Shown here: positions 1-41,795 of the stretch, piece after piece
Position numbering within the stretch: the stretch's first letter is position 1
Layout of the letters: the number at the start of each line of letters is the position of its first letter
DNA from: Actinomycetota bacterium
GTDB taxonomy: Bacteria > Actinomycetota > Thermoleophilia > Miltoncostaeales > Miltoncostaeaceae
Length of the DNA: 64,000 bases
NCBI GenBank assembly: GCA_963169235.1
Contig: CAUJCX010000015.1
Coordinates: 1 to 64,000, forward strand
Direction: 5' to 3'
Notes under the pieces: model-generated
The model's database searches: none
The model's input: only the letters and a program-made list of their open reading frames with translations
Told to the model about the DNA's origin: nothing
Position numbers and translations under genes: made by a program

Positions 1-605
1 CGCGCCAGGTGGCCCACGCGCCCGAAGATGTAGAACGTGCGGGCCACGTTCTTCGGCATCTCGTGCGTCTTGGAGTACTCGTCGAAGTCGCGGCTGATCG
101 CGAGCTTCGCCTGGTACGCGCCCACGCCGATGAACACCAGGCCGGCGAGCACGATGAGCAGGCGCCCGGCCGGCCACGTCATCACGTCGGCGGCGATGCT
201 CTTCGGCGGAGTCTTCTTGGCGGCGCCGATCAGCGTGGTCACCGCCATGCCCAGAAACAGCGTGTACGCCAGGCCGCTGGCCACGGCCGCCACGCGCTCG
301 CCGGTTGAGTAGCTGCCCTGCTCGGGGGTGCGGCCCACCGCGGCCTGCACGAACCGCCACACGGCGTAGCCCAGCAGGCCGACGGCGAGGGCCGTCACCA
401 GTACCTTGCCCAGCGGCTTCTCGAGCAGCTCGGCGATGGCTCCTTGCTGGTTCGGGGCGTGCTCGGCCGTGTGGTTGCGGGCAAGCCCGAACGCCAGCAC
501 CCCGATGAGCACGTAGATGAGGCCGCGCGACACGTACCCTGCGCGTGCCAGCGCCTCGAATGCACGCGAACGGCTGAAGTCACGAACTGAGGTTTCGGCG
601 GTCAT
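1..605 (-). CDS. DUF1206 family membrane protein (3' end outside window)
   Basis: Reading the minus strand from an ATG at 605 gives an uninterrupted frame that runs off the left edge, so about 201 residues are visible and the C-terminus is missing. The protein alternates short basic/acidic segments with hydrophobic stretches (around residues 25-42, 68-88, 108-126 and 148-165). This repeated two-helix pattern, with the opening SRAFEALARAGYVSRGLIY, is characteristic of DUF1206 integral membrane proteins of actinobacteria and proteobacteria, whose role is unknown. It is divergent from the lipid kinase at 672, separated by 66 bp that must hold both promoters. Family assignment is from recognised sequence pattern only. 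Confidence 0.75.
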   Translation of the reverse strand, partial: MTAETSVRDFSRSRAFEALARAGYVSRGLIYVLIGVLAFGLARNHTAEHAPNQQGAIAELLEKPLGKVLVTALAVGLLGYAVWRFVQAAVGRTPEQGSYSTGERVAAVASGLAYTLFLGMAVTTLIGAAKKTPPKSIAADVMTWPAGRLLIVLAGLVFIGVGAYQAKLAISRDFDEYSKTHEMPKNVARTFYIFGRVGHLA

Positions 606-671
606 GAGTGCTACCTGTCGTGTCGGCGGGACAGATTGGGCGGATCAACGTACGCGGACGGGAGAACGGTC

Positions 672-1571
672 ATGAGTGAGGGCGTCATCGCGGTGGTCGG
701 GCACTCCGGCAAGACGTTCGGCGAGGGGCTGGACGGCCTGCGCGACGCGCTGGCCGCGCGTGGCGTCAGCGACCCGTTGTGGCTGGTGGTCGACGACGGG
801 GCGCTGCTCACCGACAAGGCCCGCGAGGCGGTCGACAAGGGGGCCGACCTGGTGATCACGTGGGGCGGCGACGGCACCGTGCAGTGCTGCGCCGACGCGC
901 TGGCCGGATCGGGCGTGCCCATGGCCATCATGCCCGCGGGCACCGCCAACCTGCTGGCCGCCAATCTGGGGGTGCCGCAGGACATCGACGAGGCCCTCGA
1001 CATCGCGCTGGACGGGCGCCGCGTGAAGCTTGACGTCGGACGCGCCAACGGCGAGGTGTTCGCCGTGATGGCGGGCGCCGGCATGGACGCGCTGGTCATC
1101 GGCGGGGCCGACGACGACGTGAAGGCCAAGATCGGCCGCCTGGCGTACATCGCATCGGCCGCCAAGAGCGTGCGGGCCGACCCGTTCGTCGCCGAGATCG
1201 AGATCGACGGCGAGCAGTTCTTCTCGGGCGAGGCCACGTGCGTGCTGCTGGGCAACGTGGGCGAGTTGTTCGGCGGCCTTCAGCCCTTCCCCGACGCGCA
1301 ACCCGACGACGGCCGCCTGGAGGTGGGCGTCGTCACCGCCGACGGCACGCTGCAATGGCTGCGCACCATGGCCCGCGCGGTCGCGGGCCGGGCCGCCGAG
1401 TCGCCCGACGTCGACGAGACCACGTTCACGCGGCGCGGCACCATCCGCTTCGACCGCGACGTCGAGTTCGAGCTCGACGGCAACGAGCGCGGAGCGGTGC
1501 GCGAGATCGACCTCGAGGTGGATCCCGGGGCGCTGGTGGTGTGCGCGCCGACCCGTCAACAGGAGTCCTGA
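672..1571 (+). CDS. Diacylglycerol kinase family lipid kinase (YegS/LCB5 type)
   Basis: Soluble protein of 299 residues predicted to phosphorylate a lipid such as diacylglycerol with ATP. The catalytic-domain signature is clear: a GGDGTV nucleotide loop near residue 75, then MPAGTANLLAANLG, the usual N/D-rich loop of DAGK_cat proteins, and a C-terminal domain ending with the ELDGNERG motif seen in this family. An in-frame ATG exists at 636, but the ATG at 672 is preceded by GGGAGAA at a reasonable distance and removes a poorly conserved 12-residue extension, so 672 is preferred. The stop overlaps by 16 bp the stop region of the convergent PAP2 phosphatase, which is the type of enzyme that reverses its reaction. 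Confidence 0.85.
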   Translation: MSEGVIAVVGHSGKTFGEGLDGLRDALAARGVSDPLWLVVDDGALLTDKAREAVDKGADLVITWGGDGTVQCCADALAGSGVPMAIMPAGTANLLAANLGVPQDIDEALDIALDGRRVKLDVGRANGEVFAVMAGAGMDALVIGGADDDVKAKIGRLAYIASAAKSVRADPFVAEIEIDGEQFFSGEATCVLLGNVGELFGGLQPFPDAQPDDGRLEVGVVTADGTLQWLRTMARAVAGRAAESPDVDETTFTRRGTIRFDRDVEFELDGNERGAVREIDLEVDPGALVVCAPTRQQES

Positions 1572-39708: not shown

Positions 39709-40419
39709 ATGAGCACTCAGATCAGCGACGTCGGCGGCCTCGACAGCACCCTGTCCCGGATCCGTGAGATCCAGGCCATGGGGCAGCCCGTGCCGACCGG
39801 ACCCACACAGACCGTGACCACGTCGGCGTTCGCGCAGCAGCTCGCGACGGCCCAGGCGGCGTCCCCCACGGCGGCGTCCACGCCGGGGCTCGACTCCCTG
39901 ACCACGAACCCCGCCGCCATCACGTCCATGGGCCTCACGCCCACCGGCACCGGCAGCGCCACGGGCCAGCAGATCGCCGCCCTCGCCACCGCCGAGCTGG
40001 GCGTGCGCGAGCAGCCGCCCGGGTCCAACAACGGCGCCCGCATCGCCGAGTACCGCACCGCCACCCAGGGCGCCGGCGTCGGCCCCTGGTGCTCCTACTT
40101 CGTGTCGTGGGTCGCCGCGCAGGCCGGCGCGCCCATCGGTCCCGACGGCCGCGGCGAGGGCTGGGTGCCCAACGTCGAGCGGTGGGGCAAGGACACCGGC
40201 CGCTGGATCGCCCCCAACTCCGGCGTCAGCGCCCAGGTGGGCGACGCCATCATCTTCGACCGCAACGGCGACGGCCTCACCGACCACATCGGCATCGTCA
40301 CGGCCGTGCGGCCGGACGGCGGCGTCGAGACCGTCGAGGGCAACTCCTCCGACGCCGTGTCGAAGCGCAGCTACGGGGCCGGTCAGTGGACCGGGCTCGT
40401 GCGCATCGCCCCCGCCTAG
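39709..40419 (+). CDS. CHAP-domain peptidoglycan hydrolase with flagellar-type N-terminus
   Basis: Protein of 236 residues. The N-terminus (DVGGLDSTLSRIREIQ, later TSAFAQQLATAQ) resembles the short pattern at the start of muramidase/CHAP proteins encoded in actinobacterial flagellar operons. The C-terminal CHAP domain has the catalytic Cys in PWCSYFVSWVAAQAG, His in DHIGIVTAV and Asn/Glu in VEGNSSD. It cleaves peptide bonds in peptidoglycan, perhaps to let a flagellum pass. No Sec signal is visible, as expected for export through the flagellar route. Its TAG stop lies inside the target duplication of the adjacent IS. Confidence 0.78.
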   Translation: MSTQISDVGGLDSTLSRIREIQAMGQPVPTGPTQTVTTSAFAQQLATAQAASPTAASTPGLDSLTTNPAAITSMGLTPTGTGSATGQQIAALATAELGVREQPPGSNNGARIAEYRTATQGAGVGPWCSYFVSWVAAQAGAPIGPDGRGEGWVPNVERWGKDTGRWIAPNSGVSAQVGDAIIFDRNGDGLTDHIGIVTAVRPDGGVETVEGNSSDAVSKRSYGAGQWTGLVRIAPA

Positions 40420-40420
40420 T
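40415..40420. repeat. Target site duplication of IS, left copy
   Basis: CCTAGT, identical to 41465-41470. It fits the NCTAGN target reported for IS481 and supplies the stop codons of the CHAP gene (plus strand) and of the transposase (minus strand). Confidence 0.85.
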
Positions 40421-41360
40421 TGTAGTGACCCGGTAGGTCGTTTACGCGGCTGATGGGTGGGGCGCCGAGGGCGGTGTGGTGGCGGTGATGGTTGTACATG
40501 TGCAGCCAGTCGGCCAGGGCGGCGGTTCGTGTGGGGTTGTCTGGCCAGGCTCGGGCGTAGGCCCATTCGTCGAGGAAGGTGCGGTGGAACCGTTCGACTT
40601 TGCCGTTGATCTGGGGTGAGTAGGGCGGGATCCGCCAGTGGCGGGCGCCTTGGGTGGTGAGCGCGGTTTGGAATCGGTCGCACAGGTACGCCTTGGCGTT
40701 GTCGGTCATCACGCCGGTGACGCTGATGCCGTGGCGGGCAAAGAACGTGGTGGCTCGCCGCCAGAACGCGACGCAGGTATCGGCGCGTTCATCAGGGTGG
40801 ATCTCGCTGTAGGCAAGCCGGGAGTAGTCATCGACTGCGGAGTGGATGAAGTCCCAACCCGGGCGGCGCGTGCGGTGGGGTCGGTGCCCACGGCCGTGGA
40901 TGCGCCATCCGCCGCCGTCGGGGACCCGCCCCAGTTTCTTGACATCGATATGCACCAACTCGCCTGGCCGGGCGCGTTCATAGCGGCGGATCACGCGACC
41001 TGTCGGGCGGTCCATCCACACCAACCGGTTCAGGCCAAGCCGGCACAGCACCCGGTGCACCGTCGAGGCCGCAACACCAAGGCGTGCACCGATCCTGACC
41101 GGGCCCAGTTTCAGTGTCCGACGAAGTTCCTCGATCGCCGCCTCCACCCCGGCCGGGCTGCGGTGGGGGCACGAATGCGGCCGACTTGAGCGGTCCACAA
41201 GGCCCGCCTCACCCTCCATCCGCCACCGCCGCCACCACTTGTAGGCGGTCGGACGCGACACCCCCATCTCCGCGGCGACGTGAGCCACCGCACGACCCGC
41301 TTCGATCCTCATCACCAACGTGAGCCGACCAACCGGCGTAAGCCGAGCGTTACCGTGCAC
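40416..41360 (-). CDS. IS481-family transposase
   Basis: Intact DDE transposase of 314 residues from GTG 41360, with AGGAGG well placed upstream. N-terminal helix-turn-helix (VGRLTLVMRIEAG, GVSRPTAYKWWRRW), then the integrase core: first Asp in LVHIDVKKLGRV, second in VTGVMTDNAKAY, Glu in INGKVERFHRTFLDEW. No frameshift or stop. The last codons run through the left terminal repeat, and the TAG stop is contributed by the CTAG of the flanking target sequence, not by the element itself. The intact ORF, repeats and duplication suggest recent movement. Confidence 0.93.
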   Translation of the reverse strand: MHGNARLTPVGRLTLVMRIEAGRAVAHVAAEMGVSRPTAYKWWRRWRMEGEAGLVDRSSRPHSCPHRSPAGVEAAIEELRRTLKLGPVRIGARLGVAASTVHRVLCRLGLNRLVWMDRPTGRVIRRYERARPGELVHIDVKKLGRVPDGGGWRIHGRGHRPHRTRRPGWDFIHSAVDDYSRLAYSEIHPDERADTCVAFWRRATTFFARHGISVTGVMTDNAKAYLCDRFQTALTTQGARHWRIPPYSPQINGKVERFHRTFLDEWAYARAWPDNPTRTAALADWLHMYNHHRHHTALGAPPISRVNDLPGHYN

Positions 41361-41464
41361 CAGTGAGCCTCCTGGTTCTGAGCGTGGTTTCTAGACAGCT
41401 CCACACTCGCCCAGGGGGCTCACCTCATGCCAGACCACCGTCAACAACGTCCGTGGTCACTACA
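40421..41464 (-). mobile_element. IS481-family insertion sequence (1044 bp)
   Basis: Boundaries are set by terminal inverted repeats, TGTAGTGACCCGG at the left and, read inward from the right end, TGTAGTGACCACGG, and by the 6-bp CCTAGT duplication outside both. The element carries one transposase gene. Before insertion, the CHAP gene and the GNAT gene ended convergently on the same CTAG. The duplication regenerated a full stop codon for each, so neither protein changed. Confidence 0.92.
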
Positions 41465-41470
41465 CCTAGT
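41465..41470. repeat. Target site duplication of IS, right copy
   Basis: CCTAGT; contains the TAG stop (read on the minus strand) of the GNAT gene. Confidence 0.85.
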
Positions 41471-41795
41471 CCTTTCCGCCCACGCCGTACGCGGCCCGCT
41501 GGGCCTCGGGAACCAGGTCGGCGTACTCCGCGTGCGTGCGGATGTACTTCGCGATCGCCGGGCACATGGGCAGCACGTGCAGCCCCTCCGCGCGGGTCTG
41601 GTCGAGTGCGGCGGTGATGAGCACGGTCGCGAGGCCCCGCCCCTGAAACGCCGGGTCCACCTCGGTGTGGGGCATCGCGCGCACGTCGTGGTTGTCGCGG
41701 TACGTGATCATGCCGGCGGGCTGGCCATCGACGGTCAGCGCGAAGCGGTCGTCGCGCTTGGTCACCACGACATCGGCCTGAGGCGAGTCGGTCAT
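41466..41795 (-). CDS. GNAT-family N-acetyltransferase (short YjdJ-like type)
   Basis: Short acetyltransferase of 109 residues. The core pattern DDRFALTVDGQPAGMITY, then MPHTEVDPAFQGRGLATVLI (acetyl-CoA pyrophosphate loop QGRGLA), and LPMCPAIAKYIRTHAEY is characteristic of the small GCN5-related family (PF14542-like). CAGGAGA lies at good distance from ATG 41795. Substrate unknown. The stop codon sits in the IS target duplication. Confidence 0.85.
   Translation of the reverse strand: MTDSPQADVVVTKRDDRFALTVDGQPAGMITYRDNHDVRAMPHTEVDPAFQGRGLATVLITAALDQTRAEGLHVLPMCPAIAKYIRTHAEYADLVPEAQRAAYGVGGKD

What the first reader, a model, noticed from the sequence alone, without database searches (positions are those of the whole stretch)
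40415..41470. IS481-family element inserted into a CTAG shared by two convergent stop codons, with both stops restored
The 1044-bp element is flanked by CCTAGT on both sides. Removing it leaves ...GCCTAGTCC..., in which the CHAP gene (plus) ends with TAG and the GNAT gene (minus) ends with the TAG read from the same CTAG; the genes overlapped by 4 bp. The 6-bp duplication gave each gene its own copy of the stop, so the insertion is seamless for both proteins. Seen directly: the repeats, duplication and stop codons. Known: IS481 prefers NCTAGN targets. Inference: CTAG at overlapping convergent stops is a ready-made safe site for this family.
Basis: partly seen in the sequence, partly recalled or inferred. 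Interest (0 to 1): 0.6.

Follow-up and report, generated by a model that had tools for sequence, protein, structure and literature searches.

The report
IS481 insertion at a shared stop
A small jumping gene (IS481 family) landed on the four-letter CTAG that ended two facing genes and duplicated it, so both genes and its own transposase each keep a stop codon; this is known behaviour for the family, and a survey here shows that its chromosomal insertions sit at gene ends more often than CTAG sites in general do.

Summary
A 1044-bp IS481-family element (40421-41464) has perfect 10-bp terminal repeats and is flanked by CCTAGT on both sides. With one copy removed, a CHAP gene (+) and a GNAT gene (-) share one CTAG as stop codon. 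A same-genus genome has the CHAP-GNAT pair adjacent, convergent and uninterrupted, although with a 4-nt gap and no CTAG.

Target-supplied stops are already published for this family (PMC2516522, PMC6794481). I tested the 'safe site' idea on 76 CTAG insertions and 500 background CTAGs. Insertions at stop codons: 48/76, about 31 expected; the excess held in two separate sets and against random regions. Insertions at a shared convergent stop: 7/76, about 3 expected, but no more than their share of all stop-codon CTAGs (p = 0.28). The safe site is therefore any stop-codon CTAG. Fourteen Streptomyces plasmid insertions showed no preference, which points to selection more than targeting.

New side finding: the family's transposase leaders share a hairpin, supported by covariation, that buries the ribosome-binding site. 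This would suit an element sitting behind host genes. It has no Rfam entry.

The parts
40421..41464 (-). IS481-family insertion sequence, 1044 bp (strand of the transposase)
   Evidence: terminal repeats and target duplication; single copy in the genome
40415..40420 (.). left target duplication CCTAGT; its CTAG holds the CHAP stop (+) and the transposase stop (-)
41465..41470 (.). right target duplication CCTAGT; its CTAG holds the GNAT stop (-)
40421..40430 (.). terminal inverted repeat TGTAGTGACC (transposase 3' end)
41455..41464 (.). terminal inverted repeat GGTCACTACA (transposase 5' end)
40416..41360 (-). transposase, 314 aa, GTG start; DD(35)E residues present; last sense codon AAC spans the junction and the TAG lies wholly in target DNA
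   Evidence: NF033577 322 bits; Pfam rve/rve_3/LZ_Tnp_IS481; junction codon
41358..41434 (-). transposase leader hairpin; arms 41411-41423 (5') and 41363-41375 (3', contains the Shine-Dalgarno AGGAGG)
39709..40419 (+). CHAP-domain protein gene (start 39688 or 39709), stop TAG in the left CTAG
   Evidence: PF05257; full-length 70% identical relative in G011
41466..41795 (-). GNAT-type acetyltransferase gene, 109 aa, stop in the right CTAG
   Evidence: PF14542; 64% identical relative in G011

Best explanation
An IS481-family element transposed into an NCTAGN site formed by the overlapping stop codons of two convergent genes. The staggered cut duplicates six bases that contain the whole palindrome CTAG, so each side of the element keeps an intact TAG on each strand: left for CHAP, right for GNAT, and left again for the transposase, whose reading frame runs through its terminal repeat (ACA|NCTAG is read A-N-C, TAG). 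Neither host protein changes. The same outcome follows at any stop-codon CTAG, single or shared. In these GC-rich genomes CTAG is scarce and about a third of the survivors are stop codons, so a CTAG-seeking element often lands at a gene end. Most likely, purifying selection against insertions in genes and intergenic control regions raises the observed share to about 63%. Shown: structure, duplication, stops, enrichment. Inferred: staggered-cut mechanism, selection as the cause, and the 4-bp overlap in the ancestor.
For: Element structure and stops; family; uninterrupted convergent pair in the same genus with matching C-termini. Seven near-identical copies in Aquihabitans sp. G128, all in different NCTAGN sites with matching 6-bp duplications. 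Transposase stop supplied by the target CTAG in 44/46, 30/38 and 14/14 elements of three samples. Stop-codon CTAG enrichment: set 1 34/46 against 95/218, set 2 14/30 against 29/184; Mantel-Haenszel OR 3.7, p 2e-6, and OR 5.8, p 1e-4 with only random regions as background; robust to the gene-calling threshold. Intragenic sites depleted, 5/76 against 95/402. Insertions between convergent genes 37/71 against 109/378, p 3e-4. Host genes at five of the other six shared-stop sites have at least one Pfam-supported partner, both partners at four.
Against: The same-genus relative has no CTAG and no overlap at the junction, so the pre-insertion state rests on the duplication alone. Genes outside the window were called with a self-written codon-usage caller, not curated annotation. 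The selection explanation is not proven: intergenic CTAGs are also under-used relative to stop CTAGs (48:23 against 124:183), which targeting could equally give. Some elements have mismatched outer bases, so a few flanks may have been recombined; with matched duplications only, the stop enrichment holds (OR 3.3, p 6e-5) but the shared-stop excess does not (p 0.17).
Confidence: 0.9

Rival explanations
1. The transposase actively prefers CTAGs at gene ends (through transcription termination, supercoiling between convergent genes, or a host factor), beyond the CTAG sequence itself.
For: Excess of stop CTAGs over intergenic CTAGs (OR about 3); excess between convergent genes; in G299, 12 of 13 copies, nearly all one near-identical element, lie at stops.
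Against: Fourteen insertions on Streptomyces plasmids, where genes are more dispensable, show no preference (2/14 at stops against 3/29 background CTAGs; 3/14 inside genes). Intragenic depletion elsewhere fits selection.
Confidence: 0.2
2. No preference at all: the site is simply one of few CTAGs in the genome, and stop codons hold many of them.
For: Background CTAGs are 2- to 8-fold below Markov expectation in most genomes; 38 of 98 CTAGs in random regions are stop codons. One insertion in this window proves nothing by itself.
Against: 48/76 against about 31 expected by within-genome permutation, p < 0.0005, seen separately in two samples.
Confidence: 0.1
3. The element specifically exploits overlapping convergent stops as a privileged safe site.
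For: 7/76 insertions at shared stops against about 3 expected, p about 0.02; at least six further cases besides this window.
Against: Not over-used among stop CTAGs (7/48 against 11/124, p 0.28); 0/30 in the second sample; excess not significant with matched duplications only (p 0.17) or random background only (p 0.22); the count includes the discovery case.
Confidence: 0.12

Closest known systems
TnRErm46 / ISRe46 (IS481 family, Rhodococcus equi; PMC6794481)
   Same: NCTAGN duplication; CTAG supplies the transposase stop and, at some sites (parB), the stop of the target gene, which is not interrupted
   Different: a 6.9-kb transposon with cargo; single stops reported, no shared convergent stop described in the passages read
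ISLxc2 and ISLxx4 (IS481 family, Leifsonia xyli; PMC2516522)
   Same: NCTAGN target; transposase stop codons lie within the host insertion site, stated there to be known for other members of the family
   Different: other sequence; effect on host stops not discussed in the passages read
IS481-family copies of Aquihabitans sp. G128 (L045-L051)
   Same: 84% identical transposase, same ends TGTAGTGACC, same target and borrowed stop, same leader hairpin
   Different: seven copies; four at single stops, three intergenic, none at a shared stop
Large IS survey PMC9208149
   Same: reports that insertions between convergent genes are over-represented for IS481 among other families
   Different: no stop-codon or CTAG background analysis in the passages read
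IS200 leader stem-loop (described in PMC3196728); IS10 and IS50 by my own knowledge
   Same: works alike: a leader hairpin occludes the transposase ribosome-binding site, as the hairpin here is predicted to do
   Different: unrelated families; for IS481 the effect is predicted, not shown

Membership tests
IS481 family | transposase over the curated NF033577 cut-off | tested here: met
   322.5 bits against 224; IS3, IS630 and IS21 models all below their cut-offs
IS481 family | DDE catalytic triad with about 35 residues between the second D and E | tested here: met
   HIDVKK, TDNAKAY and NGKVERF in the translation; 35 residues between D and E by counting; rve domains
IS481 family | single ORF, about 1 kb, terminal repeats beginning TGT | tested here: met
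   1044 bp, TGTAGTGACC/GGTCACTACA
IS481 family | 6-bp NCTAGN target duplication | tested here: met
   CCTAGT on both sides; same pattern in relatives
IS481 family | transposase stop supplied by the target CTAG (reported for several members) | tested here: met
   stop at 40416-40418 complement; 44/46, 30/38 and 14/14 relatives
IS481 family | active transposition | not testable with these tools
   single copy in this genome; intact ORF and ends only
IS630 family (TA target) | TA duplication and transposase over the family cut-off | tested here: not met
   53.5 bits against 100; 6-bp duplication

The most novel reading that the evidence does not exclude
IS481-family elements carry a three-part low-harm, self-restrained design: a CTAG target that works as a gene-end finder in CTAG-poor genomes, a transposase gene with no stop codon of its own (its last residue and its stop are written by the target), and a family-wide, undescribed leader hairpin that buries the transposase ribosome-binding site and blocks translation of read-through transcripts from the host gene in front.
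Probability: 0.35. Interest if true: 0.5.

Novelty: new member of a known kind. Interest (0 to 1): 0.33.

Why it matters
It puts numbers on a long-known target rule: in GC-rich genomes a CTAG-seeking element sits at gene ends about one and a half times as often as CTAG placement alone predicts (48 against about 31 of 76), and the 6-bp duplication makes those landings harmless to the neighbouring proteins. The leader hairpin, if it works as predicted, would explain how an element that settles directly behind transcribed genes avoids being switched on by them.

Tried and rejected
Other copies of the element in its genome: none. Rfam: no family at the element and none at the leaders of six relatives. 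Consensus folding of 37 leaders aligned by sequence alone gave nothing, because the arms did not line up; per-sequence stems anchored on the Shine-Dalgarno and a 15-sequence alignment did. A second group alignment, A2, gives the same hairpin but is too conserved to add much covariation. Idea that shared convergent stops are specially preferred: tested, not supported beyond single stops. Idea that a loop promoter makes hairpin-free native transcripts: looked at by eye, no convincing -10/-35, dropped. Literature on an IS481 leader hairpin: none in the held library, which lacks most subscription journals.

Full report
Observation. The element occupies 40421-41464 (1044 bp), with ends TGTAGTGACC and GGTCACTACA, flanked by CCTAGT at 40415-40420 and 41465-41470. 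Its transposase (complement of 40416-41360, 314 aa) is IS481 family, 322 bits against a cut-off of 224, and it is the only copy in the genome. The CHAP gene ends with TAG at 40417-40419 and the GNAT gene with the complement of 41466-41468. With one CCTAGT removed they share CTAG and overlap by 4 bp.

What was missed. The transposase frame runs through its terminal repeat into the target...CAC TAC A|AC TAG. Its stop is the left CTAG as well, so the two CTAG copies serve three genes. The same junction reading, A-N-C then TAG, was found in all 76 surveyed elements (Ser 37, Thr 25, Ile 7, Asn 7), so the last residue of the transposase depends on the target. The transposase stop comes from the target in 44/46, 30/38 and 14/14 elements of three samples. 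Set 2 of the context survey was restricted to such elements. Target-supplied stops are already published: PMC2516522 for ISLxc2 and ISLxx4, and PMC6794481 for ISRe46, where CTAG also preserves the stop of the target gene parB.

Empty relative. In the one same-genus genome, G011, the GNAT and CHAP genes are adjacent, convergent and uninterrupted: GNAT stop TAA, four bases, CHAP stop. CHAP aligns over its full length (70%) and GNAT over residues 4-107 of 109 (64%), so the insertion truncated neither. G011 has no CTAG at the junction, so the 4-bp overlap before insertion is inferred from the duplication.

Survey. I collected IS481-family elements with CTAG on both sides: 46 from 17 genomes, then 30 from a second draw. 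For each I excised the element in a script, called genes with a codon-usage caller trained on that genome's loci, and classified the target CTAG. All other CTAGs in the same loci (402) and in 20 random regions (98) served as background. At stops: set 1 34/46 against 95/218 (p 2.9e-4); set 2 14/30 against 29/184 (p 3.3e-4). Stratified by genome, OR 3.7 (p 2e-6); with random regions only, OR 5.8 (p 1e-4). Within-genome permutation at four gene-calling thresholds gives 47-48 observed against 28-31 expected. Insertions inside genes are depleted, 5/76 against 95/402, and insertions between convergent genes are in excess, 37/71 against 109/378, in line with the family-level statement in PMC9208149.

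Shared convergent stops. Seven of 76 insertions, including this one, lie at a CTAG that ends two convergent genes, against about 3 expected (p about 0.02). At four of the other six sites both host genes have Pfam matches: TetR and zinc dehydrogenase, PhoD and PKD, TerC and GH26, acyltransferase and AlkZ-like. At a fifth one gene does (GH3). At the sixth the one protein tested had none. Among stop-codon CTAGs the shared ones are not over-used (7/48 against 11/124, p 0.28), none occurred in set 2 (none in its background either), and the excess is lost with matched duplications only. The safe site is a stop-codon CTAG of either kind.

Selection or targeting. On 14 Streptomyces plasmid loci insertions show no stop preference (2/14 against 3/29 CTAGs) and three lie inside genes. 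That fits purifying selection on chromosomes better than targeting, but the sample is small and not decisive.

Leader hairpin. In 37 diverse members the transposase leader folds into a long hairpin whose 3' arm holds the Shine-Dalgarno sequence: at least three of its four core bases pair upstream in 35/37, all four in 28/37, against 12/82 for host-gene leaders, which also have weaker stems. On a 15-sequence alignment the flanking pairs covary (A-U and G-C exchanges on both sides at four pairs; 94% of cells paired, against 28-58% when the partner is slid; 0 of 500 shuffles reach the covariation score). No Rfam family matches and no paper in the held library describes it. By analogy with IS200 (PMC3196728) it would block translation from read-through transcripts; this is inference. 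In this window GNAT is transcribed towards the transposase, so such read-through is expected.

Verdict. An ordinary, well-formed IS481 insertion at a neat site. The site logic is real, but it belongs to stop-codon CTAGs in general and is partly published. What the session adds is the quantified excess at gene ends and the conserved leader hairpin.

Noticed in passing
window 41358-41434 (-) and leaders of 37 relatives, e.g. L148:9398-9476, L164:10444-10525, L110:6359-6416: Family-wide leader hairpin that sequesters the transposase Shine-Dalgarno, with two-sided covariation and no Rfam match.
   Followed up: yes
window 41391-41394; leaders of L045, L148, L162, L164, L168: The apical part of the hairpin often carries a similar motif, roughly AGCTGTCTAGGAAC, which contains CTAG although CTAG is rare in these genomes; other members have CGAG, CTAA or CAAG there.
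   Followed up: no
junction codon of all 76 surveyed elements: The last residue of the transposase is set by the target base before CTAG: Ser 37, Thr 25, Ile 7, Asn 7.
   Followed up: yes
L098, L099, L101, L102, L105, L106, L107 (genome G299): Copies of one element whose outer duplication bases do not match; in all seven the base next to the left end is G, and in five only that base differs. Recombination between copies or a base carried from the donor could explain it.
   Followed up: partly
L202, L207 (Streptomyces plasmids): Annotated minus-strand genes (a NACHT protein, a hypothetical protein) run into the element and stop inside its end, so here the insertion was not seamless.
   Followed up: no
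L005 about 372-1340 (-): In the same-genus relative G011 an additional minus-strand gene lies between the clpS-like gene and the GNAT gene; in the window these two are adjacent. The gene was not identified.
   Followed up: no
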